Below, piece by piece: positions 5,845 to 16,398 of a stretch of 64,000 bases of DNA. Source of the DNA: Anaeromyxobacter dehalogenans 2CP-1 (GTDB taxonomy: Bacteria; Myxococcota; Myxococcia; Myxococcales; Anaeromyxobacteraceae); contig NC_011891.1 of the NCBI RefSeq assembly GCF_000022145.1, forward strand, positions 1,686,001 through 1,750,000. Direction: 5' to 3'. The first letter of the stretch is position 1; each line of letters opens with the position of its first letter. A program made the translations under genes and the position numbers. The notes below the pieces were generated by a model. That model was given only the letters and a program-made list of their open reading frames with translations, ran no database searches and was not told the origin of the DNA.

Positions 5845-7122
5845 ATGGGCAGCGAGATGGGATTCGTGGCACCCCCGACGACGGAGGTGCCGATGGTCGA
5901 GGCGGAGGCGGTCAGGCAGATGCGTGACCTCGCGGGTAAGGGCTGGGGCGCGAAGCGGATCGCGCGCGAACTCGGCGTGGCTCGCAACACGGTGCGTCGG
6001 TACCTGCGCGGCGCGGTGGCCGATCTCCAACGGCACCCTTCACAGCAGCGGCTCGACGACGTCCGGCGAGCTGAAGCGGTCGCGCTATTCGAGGGCGAGG
6101 CCGAGGGCAACGCCGTGGTCGTCGCGCAGATGCTCGGTGAGCGCGGCGTTGAGGCGAGCGTGAGGACCGTGCAGCGTGCCGTGGCGGACCGCCGGCGCGA
6201 GCAGCGCGCCGCCGACGTTGCGACGGTCCGGTTCGAGACCGCGCCGGGCCGGCAGATGCAGATCGACTTCGGCGAGCGCCAGGTCTGGATCGCCGACGAG
6301 CGCGTGACGGTGCACTTCCTGGCCGCGGTGTTGAGCTACTCGCGGCGGATCTTCGTGAAGGCGTTCCTGCACGAGCGTCAGGGCGAGTGGCTCGACGGGA
6401 TCGCGTCGGCGTTCCGCCACTTCGGCGGCGTGCCGCTCGAGGTTCTCGGCGACAACACGCGCTGCCTCGTCGCCGGCCGCAACCGAGAGGCGCAGACCGT
6501 GATCTTCCACCCGGCGTATGTCGCGTTCTGCCGCGATTGGGATGTTCAGCCGCGCGCCTGCCAGCCATACCGCGCCAGGACCAAGGGTAAGACCGAGTCC
6601 GGCGTGAAGTACGTGAAGCGAAACGCGATCGCCGGTCGGCGGTTTAACTCGTTCGCGCACCTGCAGGACCACCTATCCGCGTGGCAGCTCCTCGTGGACG
6701 GCCGCGTGCACGGGACGACGCACGAGGCACCTGCGAAACGCTTCGAGCGCGACGAGCGCGAGGCACTGAGGTCGCTGCCCGCGCGGCCGCTCCCGACGCA
6801 CGGCCGTCGCCTGCAGCGGCGCGTCGCGAACGACTCGCTCATCGACATCGACACGGTCCGCTACAGCGTTCCGCACCGCCTCGTGCGCGACCGCGTCGAG
6901 GCGCTCGTCACCGCCGACGAGGTTCGCATCTTCCACGGCCGCGACGTCGTAGCGGTTCACGCGCGCTCGTTCGAGCCGCACGCGCGGGTGATCGACCCGG
7001 CCCACCTCGACGGCCTCTGGCGCCGGCCTGCGGCTGAGAACCTCGTTCCCATCGCGCAGCCGCTCGCCGCGCTCGGACGGACGCTCGACGACTACGCGGC
7101 CGTGATCGGCGGTGCCGCGTGA
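5845..7122 (+). CDS. istA: IS21-family transposase IstA
   Basis: The 425-residue protein opens with a helix-turn-helix (about residues 15-50, IARELGVARNTVRRYLRG) that binds the element ends. A DDE catalytic core follows: Asp141 in MQIDFGE, Asp203 in VLGDNTRC and Glu251 in GKTESGVKY. All three acidic residues are present, so the enzyme should be active. It cuts and joins the element ends together with the IstB ATPase, whose gene overlaps the last four bases (GTGA). The start was taken at the ATG inside the left end region; a GGAGG site (AAGGAGGCGGAG) precedes it. Confidence 0.95.
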   Translation: MGSEMGFVAPPTTEVPMVEAEAVRQMRDLAGKGWGAKRIARELGVARNTVRRYLRGAVADLQRHPSQQRLDDVRRAEAVALFEGEAEGNAVVVAQMLGERGVEASVRTVQRAVADRRREQRAADVATVRFETAPGRQMQIDFGERQVWIADERVTVHFLAAVLSYSRRIFVKAFLHERQGEWLDGIASAFRHFGGVPLEVLGDNTRCLVAGRNREAQTVIFHPAYVAFCRDWDVQPRACQPYRARTKGKTESGVKYVKRNAIAGRRFNSFAHLQDHLSAWQLLVDGRVHGTTHEAPAKRFERDEREALRSLPARPLPTHGRRLQRRVANDSLIDIDTVRYSVPHRLVRDRVEALVTADEVRIFHGRDVVAVHARSFEPHARVIDPAHLDGLWRRPAAENLVPIAQPLAALGRTLDDYAAVIGGAA

Positions 7123-7898
7123 GCACCGAGATCACGCGGGCTCGCGTCCTCGAGAGCCTCGGCCGGCTCCGCCTCGGGCGCATCGGCGAGCAGCTCGACG
7201 CGTTGCTTTCGACCGCGGCACGGGGCGAGCCGACGTACCTCGACTTCCTCGACACGATCCTGCGCGAGGAGGTCGGGGCGAAGCAGCGGAAGCGCGTCGC
7301 GATGGGCATCCAGATCGCGCACTTCCCCGCGGTGAAGACCCTCGACGACTTCGACTTCAAGTTCCAGCCGAGCGTCGACCAGAAGCTCGTCCGCGAGCTC
7401 GCCGTCAGCCGGTACGTCGCGAACGCGGAGAACGTGCTCGTGTTCGGCCCGCCCGGCGTCGGCAAGACGCACCTCGCCATCGGGCTCGGGCGCGCCGCAG
7501 TCGAAGCCGGCTACACCGTGCTCTTCACGAGCGCGACGGCGTTGCTGGGCGCGCTCTCGAAGGCCGAGACCGAGGGCCAGCTCGCGGAGCGGCTCGCGTT
7601 CTACGCGAAGCCCAAGCTGCTCGTCGTGGACGAGCTGGGGTACCTGCCGTTCGAGAAGCGCAGTGCGCACCTGTTCTTCCAGCTCATCGCGAGGCGGTAC
7701 GAGAAGGGCGCGATGATCATCACGACGAACCAGGTCGTCACGCAGTGGGGCACCGTGTTCGGGGACGAGATCCTCGCCGCCGCGATCCTCGACCGGCTCC
7801 TGCACCACAGCTTCACGCTGATGATCCAGGGCGAGAGCTACAGGCTGAAGCAGAAGCGCAAGGCGGGCCTGCTCGGCAGGGCCGAGAAGGCGAACTGA
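7119..7898 (+). CDS. istB: IS21 helper ATPase IstB
   Basis: The 259-residue AAA+ ATPase, related to DnaC, has Walker A GPPGVGKTH (residues 110-118) and Walker B LLVVDELGY near residue 170. IstB forms an ATP-dependent assembly on target DNA and directs IstA to it. The GTG start overlaps the istA stop, as usual for the family, which implies translational coupling. The stop codon precedes the right terminal repeat by 11 bases. Confidence 0.95.
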   Translation: MSTEITRARVLESLGRLRLGRIGEQLDALLSTAARGEPTYLDFLDTILREEVGAKQRKRVAMGIQIAHFPAVKTLDDFDFKFQPSVDQKLVRELAVSRYVANAENVLVFGPPGVGKTHLAIGLGRAAVEAGYTVLFTSATALLGALSKAETEGQLAERLAFYAKPKLLVVDELGYLPFEKRSAHLFFQLIARRYEKGAMIITTNQVVTQWGTVFGDEILAAAILDRLLHHSFTLMIQGESYRLKQKRKAGLLGRAEKAN

Positions 7899-10766: not shown

Positions 10767-11999
10767 GTGCGTTCCACCCTGCGTCCCGACAAGGTCGAGC
10801 CCTCCCGCCGCCCGCGCAGCGCTCGCGTCCACGCCGTCCCCGCGCCGTCGTCGGAGCCCGCCGGGCGGGCCGACGGCGGACTGGCCGCGGACGCCGGGCG
10901 AGGGTGGGAGGCGGCGTTCCCGATCTTCCGCGTGCTCGACGACGACGGCGTGGCGGACCCGCGCCACGCCACCCTCACGCCCGCGGAGGCGCTGGCGCTG
11001 CACCGGCACCTGGTGCGCGCGCGCGCGCTCGACGCGCGGATGACCGCGCTCCAGCGCCAGGGCCGCATCGGCTTCTACGTGGGCGCGGAGGGTGAGGAGG
11101 CGTGTGTGGTGGGCGCGGCCGCCGCGATGGCCCCGCAGGACTGGCTCTTCCCGTGCTACCGCGAGCACGCCGCGGCGCTCCTGCGCGGGCTCCCGCTGGA
11201 CGCGTTCCTCTGCAACCTGTTCGGCAACTCGGGCGATCTCGCCCGCGGCCGCCAGATGCCGTGCCACGAGACCTGGCGCGCTGGCCACTACGCCTCGGTG
11301 AGCGCGCCGCTCGGCACCCAGCTCCCGCACGCGGTCGGCGCCGCCTGGGCGGCCCGCCTGAAGGGCGAGGACATGGTGTCGCTCACCTGGTTCGGCGACG
11401 GCGCCACCAGCACGCACGACTTCCACACCGCGCTCGGCTTCGCGGGCGTGCACCGGGTGCCGGTGGTGTTCCTGTGCCGGGCCAACGGCTGGGCCATCAG
11501 CACGCCCACCGCGATGCAGACGGCCGCCGAGACCATCGCGCAGAAGGGCATCGCCTACGGCGTCCGCGGCGAGCGGGTGGATGGCAACGACCTGCTCGCG
11601 GTGCACGCGGCCACCCGCCGGGCCCGGGCGCGGGCGGCGGCGGGGGAGGGGCCGACGCTGCTCGAGTGCGTCACCTACCGCGTCGGCCCGCACACCACCT
11701 CCGACGACCCGCGCGGCTACCGCGACGAGGCCGAGGTGGCGCCCTGGCGCGCGCGGGATCCGATCGAGCGGCTGCGGGTGCACCTGGAGCGGATCGGCGC
11801 GCTCGCGCCGGGCGCGCACGCAGCCCTGCTGCGCGAGGCCGACGAGGAGATCCGCGCCGCGGTGGCGCGCGTCGAGGCGCTCCCGCCGCCGGCGCGCGAG
11901 AGCCTGTTCGACGACGTCTACGCGGAGCCCCTCCGGCAGCAGCGCGAGCAGCGCGACGAGTGCCTGGCCGCGCCGGCGGGCCCGGCGCGCGATCGCTGA
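10767..11999 (+). CDS. Thiamin-diphosphate 2-oxoacid dehydrogenase E1 alpha subunit
   Basis: The 410-residue protein matches the alpha subunit of heterotetrameric pyruvate or branched-chain 2-oxoacid dehydrogenase E1, which decarboxylates the oxoacid on thiamin diphosphate. The cofactor motif runs from GDG at residue 210 to the CRANGWAIS segment near 237-245, and the phosphorylation-loop region (YRVGPHTTSDDP) is recognisable. The first 45 residues are an Arg/Ala/Pro-rich extension. The start is GTG. No E1 beta, E2 or E3 gene lies nearby, which is unusual because alpha and beta are normally adjacent. The LysR regulator upstream probably controls it. Branched-chain specificity is likely but not proven. 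Confidence 0.85.
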   Translation: MRSTLRPDKVEPSRRPRSARVHAVPAPSSEPAGRADGGLAADAGRGWEAAFPIFRVLDDDGVADPRHATLTPAEALALHRHLVRARALDARMTALQRQGRIGFYVGAEGEEACVVGAAAAMAPQDWLFPCYREHAAALLRGLPLDAFLCNLFGNSGDLARGRQMPCHETWRAGHYASVSAPLGTQLPHAVGAAWAARLKGEDMVSLTWFGDGATSTHDFHTALGFAGVHRVPVVFLCRANGWAISTPTAMQTAAETIAQKGIAYGVRGERVDGNDLLAVHAATRRARARAAAGEGPTLLECVTYRVGPHTTSDDPRGYRDEAEVAPWRARDPIERLRVHLERIGALAPGAHAALLREADEEIRAAVARVEALPPPARESLFDDVYAEPLRQQREQRDECLAAPAGPARDR

Positions 12000-12101
12000 C
12001 GCGGGGGGGGCGCCGGCGCGAGGGACGCGCACCGGGGAAAGGCAGCGCTCCGCGCGGTCCGCCGGTTGCCCGCGCGCCGCGACTGCCGCATAACCTCCGC
12101 C

Positions 12102-13376
12102 ATGCCCACGCCGCAGGGAGCGCTGCTCCTCCTCGTCCCCACCACGAGCTACCGCCTCGACGACTTCCGGGCCGCCGCGCAGCGCCTGAACGTCCCGCTG
12201 CTCGTCGGGAGCGATCGCTGCCACCAGATCGAGGACACCTTCGGGCCGGAGGCGGGCCTCCTCTCCCTCGACTACCGGAAGCCGGAGCACGCGGCGGAGC
12301 AGGTGGCGGAGGCGGCCCGGACGCGGCCCATCGCCGGGATCGTCCCGGCGAGCGACCCGACCGCCGTCATCGCCGCGCTCGCCGCGGAGAAGCTCGGCCT
12401 GCCCTTCAACCCGCCCGTCGCCGCGCGCCGCGCAGCGGACAAGCACGCGATGCGCGCCACGCTCCGCGACGCCGGGGTGCCGGTGCCCGGGTTCCGGCTC
12501 CACGCGCTCGACGAGGATCCGGAGGCGGCCGCCCGCGCGGCGCCGTACCCCTGCGTGCTGAAGCCGCTCATCTTCTCGGCGTCCCGCGGCGTGATCCGCG
12601 CCGACGATCCGGCCGGGTTCGTGGCGGCCTGGCGCCGGATCCGGAAGCTGCTGCACGACACCCGCGTCGAGCGCCGCGCGCGCGAGCGCGAGGCGGCGGG
12701 CAGCGTGCTGGTGGAGGCGTTCGTGCCCGGCGCCGAGGTCGCGCTGGAGGGGCTGCTGCGCGGCGGCCGGCTCGAGGTCCTGGCGCTGTTCGACAAGCCG
12801 GACCCGCTCGACGGGCCCTACTTCGAGGAGACGATCTACGTGACGCCCTCGCGCCACCCCGCCGCGCTCCGCGCCGAGGTGGAGCGGATCACCGCGGCCG
12901 GCGCGGCGGCGCTCGGCCTGCGCGAGGGGCCGGTGCACGCGGAGCTGCGCCTGTCGCCGGACGGCCCGGTGGTCCTGGAGATCGCGGCGCGGTCGATCGG
13001 CGGCCTCTGCTCCCGCACGCTGCGCTTCGGCGCCGGGCTCACGCTGGAGGAGGTGCTGGTGGCGCACGCCATGGGCCTCCCGCTCGAGCAGGTCCGGCGC
13101 GAGGCGCGCGCGTCCGGCGTCATGATGCTGCCCATCCCGCGGCGCGGGGTCCTGCACGGCGTCCGCGGCGTGGAGGAGGCGCGGACGGTGCCCGGCGTCG
13201 ACGACGTGGTGATCACCGTGCCGGAGGGGCGCGAGGTGGTGCCGCTCCCGGAGGGCGACAGCTACCTCGGTTTCCTGTTCGCGAAGGGGGAGACGCCGGA
13301 GGAGGTGGAGCGCACCCTGCGGGAGGCGCACCGCCGGCTGGCGTTCGACATCCGGGCGCCGCTGCCGGTCGCCTGA
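12102..13376 (+). CDS. ATP-grasp carboxylate-amine ligase-like protein
   Basis: The 424-residue product has the biotin-carboxylase/L-amino-acid-ligase type of ATP-grasp fold: a pre-ATP domain (TTSYRLDDFRAAA), the ATP-binding strand CVLKPLIFSASRGVIR, and the metal-binding end LEIAARSIGG. A C-terminal 70-residue region follows, with a GRGVLHGV-type turn found in dipeptide-ligase relatives. It probably activates a carboxylate by ATP and joins it to an amine. It lies 102 bases behind the E1-alpha gene on the same strand. The ATG at 12102 was preferred to an upstream ATG that adds a short basic leader. Confidence 0.8.
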   Translation: MPTPQGALLLLVPTTSYRLDDFRAAAQRLNVPLLVGSDRCHQIEDTFGPEAGLLSLDYRKPEHAAEQVAEAARTRPIAGIVPASDPTAVIAALAAEKLGLPFNPPVAARRAADKHAMRATLRDAGVPVPGFRLHALDEDPEAAARAAPYPCVLKPLIFSASRGVIRADDPAGFVAAWRRIRKLLHDTRVERRAREREAAGSVLVEAFVPGAEVALEGLLRGGRLEVLALFDKPDPLDGPYFEETIYVTPSRHPAALRAEVERITAAGAAALGLREGPVHAELRLSPDGPVVLEIAARSIGGLCSRTLRFGAGLTLEEVLVAHAMGLPLEQVRREARASGVMMLPIPRRGVLHGVRGVEEARTVPGVDDVVITVPEGREVVPLPEGDSYLGFLFAKGETPEEVERTLREAHRRLAFDIRAPLPVA

Positions 13377-13420: not shown

Positions 13421-14224
13421 ATGTCCGCGGCTCCGGCAGCGCACGACGTCTGGGACGTGGGGGCTGGCTACGAGGCGTACATCGGCCGGTGGAGCCGGCG
13501 GGTGGCGCGCGAGGTGGTCGGGTGGCTCGGGGTGGGGCCGCACGCCCGCTGGCTGGACGTGGGCTGCGGCACCGGTGCGCTCGGCGACGCGATCGCGGCG
13601 CAGGCCGCGCCGGCCCTGGTCGTCGGCCTCGACCGCTCGATGGGCTTCGTCGCGCATGCGCATGCCCGCGCCGGCGGTGCCCACGCAGCCTTCGTCGTCG
13701 CGGACGCGCAGGCGCTGCCGGTCCGCGACGGCGCGTTCGACGCCGTGACCTCGGCGCTGGTGCTGAACTTCGTCGCCGACCCGGCGCAGATGGTGGCCGA
13801 GCTGGCCCGGGCCGCGCGGCCGGGCGCGCCCGTGGCGCTGTACGTCTGGGACTACGCCGACGGCATGGAGTACATCCGGCGCTTCTGGGACGCGGCCCGC
13901 GCGCTCGACCCGGCGGCGGCGGCGCTCGACGAGGCAGTGCGCTTCCCGGTCTGCGCGCCCGGGCCGCTCGCGGCCCTGCTCGAGGGCGCGGGGCTCGCGA
14001 GCGTCGAGGTGCGCCCGGTCGAGGTGCCCACCGTCTTCCGCGACTTCGCCGAGTGCTGGGCGCCGTTCCTGGCCGGCCAGGGACCGGCGCCCGCCTACGC
14101 GATGGCGCTCCCCGAGGATCGCCGCGCGGCGCTGCGCGTGGCGTTCCGGGCGGCGCTGCCGGTGTCGGCGGACGGCACCATCCCGCTCCGCGCCCGCGCC
14201 TGGGCGGCGCGCGGCCTCCGCTGA
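13421..14224 (+). CDS. Class I SAM-dependent methyltransferase
   Basis: The 267-residue protein shows the SAM-binding motif I LDVGCGTGALGDAI (about residues 45-58), an acidic post-I GLDRSM and motif IV VTSALVLNFV. It resembles UbiE/Methyltransf_11 enzymes, and the substrate cannot be inferred. The ATG follows GGGGAGGGC. It is convergent with the radical SAM selenoprotein gene; 16 bases separate the two stops when the longer selenocysteine reading is used. Confidence 0.9.
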   Translation: MSAAPAAHDVWDVGAGYEAYIGRWSRRVAREVVGWLGVGPHARWLDVGCGTGALGDAIAAQAAPALVVGLDRSMGFVAHAHARAGGAHAAFVVADAQALPVRDGAFDAVTSALVLNFVADPAQMVAELARAARPGAPVALYVWDYADGMEYIRRFWDAARALDPAAAALDEAVRFPVCAPGPLAALLEGAGLASVEVRPVEVPTVFRDFAECWAPFLAGQGPAPAYAMALPEDRRAALRVAFRAALPVSADGTIPLRARAWAARGLR

Positions 14225-14240: not shown

Positions 14241-15668
14241 TCAGCGCCGGGGGTCCTCGGAGAGCCCGTCGACCTGACGGGCCGTCGGCTCTGCTCAACA
14301 GAACCAGCTCTCGGTGAGGCGGGGCACGCGCCGCTGGTCGGGGGCGAGCACGCGGACGTGCCGGTGCGGCAGCCCGGCCGCGGCGAGCACCAGCGCGCGG
14401 ACGCGCGCGATGGTCTCGAGCGGCGGCGCCTCGCGCGCGGCGCCGGCCTCGACCTCGGCGGCGATCCGCGGCTGCAGCGCGTCCATCCGCGGATCCGGGT
14501 GGCGCCAGCGCCAGGTGAGCGCGGCCGCGTCGAGCCCCTCGAACGCGATCCCGGGCGCGCGCTCGAGCAGCGAGCCGGGCGGGATCAGCAGGCGGATGGA
14601 GAGCTGCACCGGATCGAGGTTCGGGAGCATCCCCTCCGCCTCGAGCACGTCGAGCAGGTCCACCAGGTCGTCGAGCGTGCCCCAGGGCGTGAACGGCACC
14701 AGCGTCGGGCGGAGGGGCACGCCGGCCGCGGCGCAGGCGCGGAACGCGGCCAGCGCGGCGGCGCGGTCGTGACCCTTGTCGAGCGCCGCCAGCACGCGCT
14801 CCGAGAGCGACTCGACCGCGGAGGTGACGAACACCGCGCCGAGCCGCGCCAGCTCCGCCACCGCGTCCGCGTGCTCCACCAGGTGCGAGACCTTGGCGGT
14901 GAAGTCGAAGGTGAGCGCGGAGAAGCGCGCGTGCACCGCGCGCGCGACGCGGAGCGCGTGCGTCGGGCCGTTCAGGAAGTCGGGGTCGCCGAACGTGACG
15001 TGCGCGGCCCCGAGCGCCACCTGCCGCGTCACGTCCTCGACCACCGTCTCGAGCGGCACCGCCACGAAGCGGCCGCGGTAGACCGGCGGGATGGGGCAGT
15101 GGCGGCAGAGGTGCTTGCACCCGCGGGTCGCCTCGGCGTAGCCGGCCACCTGGAGCGTCCCGTCGGCGGCGGCGAGGCGCGCGTAGCGCGACAGCGCCGG
15201 GAGCCCGGCGCGGCTCGGGACCGGGAAGTCGAGCCGGGCCCGCGGCGCCGCGTCCCCGCCGCGCTGGACGAAGCGGGCGAGGTCCGCTCCGCGCTCGAGC
15301 GCGGCCGCGAGCGCGACGAGCTCCTCCTCGCACTCGCCGCCGAGGACCGCGATGGCGCCGGCCGCGAGCAGCAGCTCCGCGTGGAGCGGCGCGTACAGGC
15401 CGTGGAACGCGATCGCGGCGGCAGGGTTGAGCGCCCGCACGCGCGCCGCCGCCTCGAGCCCGAGGCGCAGCGCGGTGTGCATGGGGACGGAGAGCGCGAC
15501 CAGGCGCGCGGCGGCCACCCGGGCCGGATCGAGCGGCTCGACCGCGAGATCGAGGCAGGCGGGCGCGAACCCGGCGCGCTCCAGGAACGCGCGGGGTAGC
15601 GCCAGCCCGTGCGGCTGGTGACCGAGCTCGTACGTGGAGACGAGGAGGATCTCGCCCGGACGCCGCAC
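14241..15668 (-). CDS. Radical SAM selenoprotein with Cys-Sec-Ala-Glu-Pro tail
   Basis: A B12-binding-like N-terminal domain (residues 1-130) precedes a radical SAM core whose 4Fe-4S ligands are Cys184, Cys188 and Cys191 (TRGCKHLCRHC). Conventional reading stops at a TGA at 14295-14297 after TESWFC. Reading that TGA as selenocysteine continues in frame for 17 codons (AEPTARQVDGLSEDPRR) to a TGA at 14241, giving 475 residues. The resulting C-U-A-E-P tail matches the family NCBI names CUAEP/CCAEP-tail radical SAM protein, in which Cys or Sec occupies that site. A hairpin right after the TGA fits a bacterial SECIS. Substrate unknown. Catalysis presumably uses the vicinal Cys-Sec pair at 457-458. 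Confidence in the radical SAM call is high; that in Sec insertion is about 0.85. Confidence 0.88.
14262..14291 (-). promoter_or_regulatory. Candidate bacterial SECIS hairpin
   Basis: On the mRNA, starting three bases after the TGA, GAGCC pairs with GGCTC; the apical part is GTC-AGGTC-GAC. The AGGUC loop sits 17-24 bases past the TGA, and as I recall it equals the core of the E. coli fdhF SECIS loop (AGGUCU) recognised by SelB. The bulged U of the E. coli element was not identified. Confidence 0.65.
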
Positions 15669-15710: not shown

Positions 15711-15989
15711 CTAGCCCTTGGACGGCGGCGGCCGGTAGTCGGGCGGGAGCTGCGCGTTCTCGCCGAAGAAGAACTGCTCGGCCTGCTGGTAGAGGATCTC
15801 GGTGGTCCGCGGGTCCGCCGGGGCGAGGCGGTACTCGTTGAGGATCATCTTGAAGTGCTCGAGCCAGAGCTTCCAGGCGTCCTGCGAGATCGAGTCGTAG
15901 ATCCGCTGCCCGAGCTCGTTCGGGAAGGGCTTGTAGGCGAGGCCCGGCAGCTCACGGCCGAGCTTCTTGCACATCACCATTCGCGCCAC
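15711..15989 (-). CDS. yggX: YggX-type Fe(II)/oxidative damage protection protein
   Basis: The 92-residue product aligns with YggX: the N-terminus [13 protein letters not shown] corresponds to MSRTIFCTFLQRE of E. coli, including the conserved Cys7, and the body has [17 protein letters not shown] and the [17 protein letters not shown] helix. Family members take part in iron trafficking and protect Fe-S enzymes from oxidation. The GTG at 15989 was chosen because AAAGGA stands about nine bases upstream and it restores the usual N-terminus; the ATG three codons later is the alternative. Confidence 0.9.
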
Positions 15990-16160: not shown

Positions 16161-16367
16161 TCAGGACAGCAGCGACGTCGGCGAGACCGACAGCGCCTTC
16201 GCCAGCGACTCGAGCGTGTCGAGCGGCGGCGTGCGCTGGCCGCGCTCGAGCATGGAGATGTACGAGACGGACAGCCCGGCCTTGGCGGCCAGGGCCTCCT
16301 GGGACAGCTTGCGGCGGAGACGTTCGCTCTTGAGGTTGACGGCGAACTTGTCGGCGAGTGCGGCCAT
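16161..16367 (-). CDS. Small Xre/Cro-type helix-turn-helix regulator
   Basis: The 68-residue protein is little more than a Cro/C1-type HTH domain: KLSQEALAAKAGLSVSYISM is the helix-turn-helix and ERGQRTPPLDTLESLAKAL completes the five-helix fold. The ATG follows AGGGAGCC. Two related palindromes stand 32 to 67 bases upstream of the start, so autoregulation is likely. There is no toxin-like partner gene beside it. Confidence 0.9.
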   Translation of the reverse strand: MAALADKFAVNLKSERLRRKLSQEALAAKAGLSVSYISMLERGQRTPPLDTLESLAKALSVSPTSLLS

Positions 16368-16398
16368 GGTGGCTCCCTGCGGTGTCACGGTGGGTGAT

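What the first reader, a model, noticed from the sequence alone, without database searches (positions are those of the whole stretch)
14241..14300. In-frame TGA reads as selenocysteine in a radical SAM enzyme
The radical SAM gene seems to end at a TGA right after TESWFC. Continuing in frame gives AEPTARQVDGLSEDPRR and a stop 18 codons later. The joined tail C-U-A-E-P matches the diagnostic ending of the CUAEP/CCAEP-tail radical SAM family, so standard gene calling would truncate the protein just before its likely active residue. The extension still ends 16 bases short of the convergent methyltransferase gene, so it costs no overlap.
Basis: partly seen in the sequence, partly recalled or inferred. 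Interest (0 to 1): 0.9.

Follow-up and report, generated by a model that had tools for sequence, protein, structure and literature searches.

The report
Selenocysteine-tailed radical SAM enzyme with partners
A stop codon in this soil bacterium's gene is really read as the rare amino acid selenocysteine, giving a full-length radical SAM enzyme of a known family without known function that almost always travels with an amino-acid-joining enzyme and usually sits beside iron-handling genes.

Summary
The minus-strand radical SAM gene (15668 to 14241) has an in-frame TGA at 14295-14297; read through, it ends ...RLTESWFC-U-AEPTARQVDGLSEDPRR. The full protein matches NCBIfam NF040546 (CUAEP/CCAEP-tail radical SAM (seleno)protein) at 678.6 bits (cut-off 500), through the Sec position.

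Selenocysteine is very well supported. All 80 relatives fetched keep WFC[C/U]xEP (51 with TGA, 29 with a Cys codon). TGA-type genes carry a hairpin at a fixed distance after the UGA; Cys-type genes mostly do not. The genome has selA, selB, selC and selD. Sec is already described for this family, so this part is not new.

New here is the context. (1) An L-amino-acid-ligase-like ATP-grasp protein (window 12066-13376) tracks CUAEP almost one to one across 195 genomes of the phylum. (2) Of 62 loci with adequate flanks, 55 have an iron or Fe-S gene (yggX, nifU-like, iscA, SUF, CDGSH) or DUF169 within 3 kb, usually directly adjacent on the same strand. (3) The nearest family is ArsL, the arsinothricin radical SAM enzyme, which also ends in a Cys pair.

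I propose a radical SAM plus ligase pathway tied to iron handling. The chemistry is inferred.

The parts
14241..15668 (-). CUAEP-tail radical SAM selenoprotein gene, 475 residues with Sec458, stop codon included
   Evidence: NF040546.1, 678.6 bits over residues 7-467; 80 homologous loci
14295..14297 (-). UGA codon read as selenocysteine (Sec458)
   Evidence: TGA or a Cys codon at this place in all 80 relatives; sel genes in the genome
14244..14294 (-). 17-residue coding extension AEPTARQVDGLSEDPRR, missed by standard gene calling
   Evidence: [A/S/T]EP invariant or nearly so in 81 sequences
14263..14283 (-). Bacterial SECIS-like hairpin: 8-pair stem GGCCCGUC/GACGGGCU (one G-U), loop AGGUC, loop starting 22 nt after the U of UGA
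   Evidence: Same position and loop type in Sec-type relatives, much weaker in Cys-type
15711..15977 (-). yggX (Fe(II) trafficking / oxidative damage protection), 42 bp upstream of the radical SAM gene on the same strand; the only copy in the genome
   Evidence: NF003817 and PF04362 over cut-off; single match in the genome; directly upstream in 22 of 22 loci that have it
12066..13376 (+). ATP-grasp ligase (ATP-grasp_4 + LAL_C2), co-occurring partner of CUAEP
   Evidence: Pfam; nearest solved structure L-amino acid ligase BL00235; co-occurrence

Best explanation
The TGA is a true Sec codon, so the gene makes a 475-residue member of the NF040546 radical SAM family whose C-terminal tail carries an invariant Cys-Sec pair (Cys-Cys in other members). 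Supported by comparison: SelB and a stem-loop just after the UGA insert Sec; the enzyme works in one pathway with an ATP-grasp amino-acid ligase and is linked to iron/Fe-S handling genes. Inferred by analogy with the sister family ArsL: the [4Fe-4S] cluster on C184/C188/C191 reductively cleaves SAM, and the Cys457-Sec458 pair serves as a thiol/selenol site that binds a thiophilic substrate (or a labile metal/Fe-S site) beside the SAM site. The resulting modified amino acid is joined to a second amino acid by the ligase. The small product, or the enzyme's own labile cluster, would explain the company of YggX, Nfu, IscA or SUF genes.
For: Sec: conserved tail in 80 of 80 relatives, 29 with Cys codons; UGA-proximal hairpin in Sec-type only, p 1.6e-10; selA, selB, selC, selD present; selB over the cut-off in 27 of 30 Sec-type and 8 of 21 Cys-type genomes. 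Ligase: 33 of 34 CUAEP genomes have it and 159 of 161 without CUAEP lack an orthologue; 34 of 39 other CUAEP genomes have it. Iron link: 55 of 62 loci with flanks; CUAEP inside a SUF operon in several phyla. ArsL sister relation and shared C-terminal Cys pair; ArsL chemistry from PMC8552651.
Against: No biochemistry exists for the family in the papers searched. The window hairpin alone folds no better than shuffles. Seven of 62 loci lack the iron/DUF169 neighbours, and DUF169 has no known iron role. The tail's distance to the SAM site could not be measured. Loci are related by descent, so counts are not independent.
Confidence: 0.55

Rival explanations
1. The Fe/Fe-S neighbours are only maturation or protection factors for this oxygen-sensitive enzyme, perhaps because a labile or sacrificial auxiliary cluster bound by Cys457/Sec458 must be rebuilt each turnover (as NfuA does for LipA, general knowledge). 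The pathway's product has nothing to do with iron.
For: The neighbours are mutually replaceable carriers and protectors (Nfu, IscA, YggX, SUF) rather than one fixed enzyme. C457/U458 are the only invariant Cys/Sec outside the CX3CX2C motif.
Against: Two invariant ligands are few for a cluster; YggX is not a known cluster carrier; the whole SUF operon serves the entire cell, not one enzyme.
Confidence: 0.3
2. CUAEP is an arsenic enzyme like ArsL: it transfers the aminocarboxypropyl group of SAM to As(III) held by the Cys-Sec pair, and the ligase builds an arsinothricin-type peptide.
For: ArsL is the nearest family by far (271 bits, next 36); both end in a Cys pair; two ArsL-type plasmid clusters also hold an ATP-grasp gene.
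Against: No arsM, arsN1, arsR, arsC, arsH, arsI or arsQ homologue in the 81 loci; five Chloroflexota loci have an ArsB-superfamily transporter several kb away. Below the ArsL cut-off, different tail. Vertical, widespread distribution beside iron genes is unlike a resistance cluster.
Confidence: 0.1
3. The TGA is an ordinary stop and the protein ends at WFC; the downstream frame is noncoding.
For: The T. roseum RefSeq gene is annotated as ending at its TGA.
Against: Tail conserved in 80 of 80 relatives, Cys codons replace the TGA in 29, the hairpin is specific to the TGA form, and the sel machinery is present.
Confidence: 0.02

Closest known systems
NF040546 CUAEP/CCAEP-tail radical SAM (seleno)protein (NCBIfam equivalog)
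   Same: Whole length, cluster motif and C-U-A-E-P tail; score well over the curated cut-off
   Different: Nothing found that sets it apart; it is an ordinary Sec-type member. The ligase partner and iron-gene neighbours are not part of the family's name
ArsL, RCCLKC-tail radical SAM protein (NF040542), arsinothricin biosynthesis
   Same: 32-33% identity, shared invariant residues across the barrel, B12-type N-domain, C-terminal Cys pair; some clusters hold an ATP-grasp gene
   Different: Tail RCCLKC against CUAEP, score 271 below the 450 cut-off, ArsL lies in ars operons while CUAEP lies beside iron/Fe-S genes
AprD4 (6fd2), TsrM, OxsB, MiaB, MgmA: radical SAM enzymes with a B12-type or related N-domain
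   Same: Overall fold (AprD4 Z 27.3, 405 residues, rmsd 3.9)
   Different: 15-21% identity and no CUAEP tail alignment; different reactions
L-amino acid ligase BL00235 (3vot)
   Same: Nearest solved relative of the ATP-grasp partner, E 3e-67 over nearly the whole profile
   Different: The partner forms its own conserved group; no NCBIfam model reached its cut-off for it

Membership tests
NF040546 CUAEP/CCAEP-tail radical SAM (seleno)protein | Curated whole-protein score cut-off (500 bits) | tested here: met
   678.6 bits
NF040546 CUAEP/CCAEP-tail radical SAM (seleno)protein | C-terminal CUAEP or CCAEP motif | tested here: met
   CUAEP at residues 457-461
NF040546 CUAEP/CCAEP-tail radical SAM (seleno)protein | Radical SAM CX3CX2C motif | tested here: met
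   C184, C188, C191, present in 81 of 81
Bacterial selenoprotein | selA, selB, selC, selD in the genome | tested here: met
Bacterial selenoprotein | SECIS-type stem-loop just downstream of UGA | tested here: met
   Conserved position, loop and pairing in Sec-type genes, weak in Cys-type; no Rfam model matched
Bacterial selenoprotein | Sec shown in the protein | not testable with these tools
   Needs mass spectrometry or 75Se
ArsL (NF040542) | Curated score cut-off (450 bits) | tested here: not met
   271 bits
ArsL (NF040542) | C-terminal RCCLKC tail | tested here: not met
   Tail is FCUAEP
ArsL (NF040542) | Aminocarboxypropyl transfer to As(III) | not testable with these tools
   Needs enzyme assay
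Cobalamin-dependent radical SAM enzymes | DxHxxG cobalamin lower-ligand motif in the N-domain | tested here: not met
   Absent in 80 of 81 sequences, the one case looks like chance; a binder without the motif is not excluded
L-amino acid ligase (ATP-grasp partner) | ATP-grasp_4 and LAL_C2 domains | tested here: met
   Both over their gathering scores

The most novel reading that the evidence does not exclude
CUAEP and its ATP-grasp partner form a widespread, uncharacterised two-enzyme pathway in which a selenol-containing radical SAM enzyme makes a small, probably amino-acid-derived, metal-handling compound that feeds or protects Fe-S cluster and Fe(II) trafficking in many bacterial phyla.
Probability: 0.25. 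Interest if true: 0.85.

Novelty: new member of a known kind. Interest (0 to 1): 0.5.

Why it matters
Gene callers can cut this enzyme at its UGA, as in the RefSeq Thermomicrobium roseum record, which removes half of the invariant Cys-Sec pair and the AEP tail; cloning the annotated gene would give a truncated protein. The near one-to-one link to an amino-acid ligase and the adjacency to iron genes turn a family without a function into a testable pathway present in Myxococcota, Nitrospirota, Rokubacteria, Planctomycetota, Chloroflexota and other phyla.

Tried and rejected
Ordinary-stop reading: rejected by conservation, Cys homologues and sel genes. Rfam scan for a known SECIS model: nothing meaningful. 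Thermodynamic z-score of the single hairpin: unremarkable, so the argument rests on comparison. First neighbour calls by GC-frame score picked antisense ORFs and were replaced by a composition score and then tblastn. Arsenic pathway by context: not supported. The convergent methyltransferase (13421-14224) was checked as a partner: a close counterpart occurs only in the very near relative L011, so it is not part of the module; PDH E1-alpha (10767-11999) likewise has a close counterpart only in L011. The SelB contingency used miscounted cells; one search is the corrected one. Literature: no paper on CUAEP, none found linking YggX, ATP-grasp, radical SAM and Sec in this way.

Full report
What is there. 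On the minus strand the radical SAM gene starts at 15668 (GTG) and runs in frame to 14241. Standard translation stops at TGA 14295-14297. Read as Sec, the frame continues AEPTARQVDGLSEDPRR and stops at 14241-14243, 16 bases from the convergent methyltransferase ending at 14224. The 475-residue product matches NCBIfam NF040546, 'CUAEP/CCAEP-tail radical SAM (seleno)protein', at 678.6 bits against a cut-off of 500, with the alignment running across the Sec position.

Is it really selenocysteine? Four lines agree. First, conservation: 80 loci fetched with this protein from many phyla all have the tail WFC[C/U][A/S/T]EP; including the window, 52 use TGA and 29 a Cys codon, and the tree needs about four changes between Sec and Cys. 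Second, RNA: in nearly all TGA genes a hairpin with an AGUU or AGGU apical loop sits 22 nt after the U of UGA. The stem averages 6.2 paired positions in 49 distinct sequences, against 1.6 at the same place in 29 Cys-type genes (p 1.6e-10) and 4.0 when 3' arms are swapped between sequences; the stems themselves vary, for example CCGUC/GACGG, GGGCC/GGCCC, GACUC/GAGUC. On its own the window hairpin does not beat shuffles, so the comparison carries the weight. Third, machinery: the window's genome (5.03 Mb, one contig) has tRNA-Sec, selA, selD, itself with an in-frame TGA, and selB. Fourth, co-distribution: selB is over the cut-off in 27 of 30 searched genomes with the Sec form and 8 of 21 with the Cys form (p 1.4e-4). 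The genomes are related, so the p values are indicative only.

Annotation consequence. The RefSeq record of Thermomicrobium roseum names its gene 'CUAEP/CCAEP-tail' but ends the CDS at the TGA; the DNA reads TTC TGT TGA GCG GAG CCG, i.e. F-C-U-A-E-P. Truncation does occur in public annotation.

Protein anatomy. Invariant or nearly invariant residues include C184/C188/C191 (radical SAM cluster), an HxTFGDPDFxNGP segment, PFTPW, RLLxPPxS, WxHPD and the tail PxxTExWFC[C/U]xEP. Outside the cluster motif the only invariant Cys/Sec are 457 and 458. The N-terminal domain is B12-type by fold but lacks DxHxxG in 80 of 81 sequences. The AlphaFold model is confident (mean pLDDT 92.9; about 70-80 near the tail motif), and its closest solved structures are AprD4, MgmA, OxsB, TsrM, CysS and MiaB.

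Nearest family. ArsL, the arsinothricin radical SAM enzyme that makes hydroxyarsinothricin from As(III) and is predicted to transfer the aminocarboxypropyl group of SAM (PMC8552651), is second by a wide margin (271 bits, next family 36). Three ArsL-family sequences from plasmids are 32-33% identical to the window protein, share many invariant positions, and end RCCLKC, whose first Cys pair aligns with C-U. By the membership test it is not ArsL: below the cut-off, different tail, and no ars biosynthesis or resistance genes nearby apart from an ArsB-superfamily transporter in five Chloroflexota loci.

A co-occurring partner. The ATP-grasp gene at 12066-13376 (ATP-grasp_4 plus LAL_C2; nearest solved structure L-amino acid ligase BL00235) recurs near CUAEP in 43 of 81 loci. 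Across 195 genomes of the phylum, orthologues track CUAEP: 33 with both, 1 with CUAEP only (69% complete), 2 with the ligase only (74% and 89% complete), 159 with neither. Eight more genomes have near full-length matches of only 177-197 bits, which I treat as paralogues; counting them would make ten ligase-only genomes. Among 39 further CUAEP genomes, most of them without the gene nearby, 34 have an orthologue. Functional coupling is strongly supported, although shared ancestry inflates the statistics. Two ArsL-type plasmid clusters also carry an ATP-grasp gene of the same broad kind, but only 22-23% identical.

Iron context. Of 62 loci with at least 1.5 kb on both sides, 40 have an iron or Fe-S gene within 3 kb, and 55 have such a gene or DUF169. 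The neighbour differs by clade but its place does not: yggX upstream (22 of 22), nifU-like downstream (25 of 25), iscA upstream (9 of 9), DUF169 on the same strand (21 of 21), most within about 100 bp. In Ignavibacteriota, Bacteroidota and Methylomirabilota members the gene sits in a SUF operon, and in one Nitrospirota MAG CUAEP and DUF169 form one ORF. In the window yggX is 42 bp upstream and is the genome's only copy.

Interpretation. Strongly supported by comparison: Sec, family membership, functional coupling to the ligase, physical linkage to iron/Fe-S genes. Inferred: that the Cys-Sec tail acts at the active site, that SAM chemistry is ArsL-like, and that the product is an amino-acid derivative joined by the ligase and used in, or dependent on, iron handling. 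The main rival is that the iron genes merely mature or repair this enzyme's own clusters; an arsenic pathway is less likely.

Confidence. Sec itself about 0.97; coupling to the ligase about 0.9; a real link to iron/Fe-S handling of some kind about 0.8; the full mechanism as stated about 0.55 at best, with the detailed chemistry much less certain.

Novelty. The ligase partnership and the iron-gene neighbourhoods did not turn up in the papers I could search, which is a limited library.

Noticed in passing
L093 7512-8948 (Thermomicrobium roseum NC_011961.1): RefSeq gene named CUAEP/CCAEP-tail is annotated to end at the TGA although the DNA continues F-C-U-A-E-P.
   Followed up: yes
L074 9998-12229: CUAEP (Cys form) and DUF169 form one 744-residue ORF in a Nitrospirota MAG: a natural fusion or an assembly error.
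   Followed up: partly
G000:C1:3923608-3924534 (own genome, outside the window): selD itself holds an in-frame TGA, so selenophosphate synthase is probably a selenoprotein too.
   Followed up: no
window 16161-16376: Small Xre-type helix-turn-helix gene on the same strand upstream of yggX, found at this place in Anaeromyxobacter loci only.
   Followed up: partly
window 5845-7898: IS21-type istA/istB transposase pair.
   Followed up: no
L094 4028-5260 and L095 2218-3441: ArsL-type (RCCLKC-tail) plasmid clusters of Alicyclobacillus and Priestia include an ATP-grasp ligase gene, suggesting that an amino-acid ligase may also follow the ArsL step there.
   Followed up: partly
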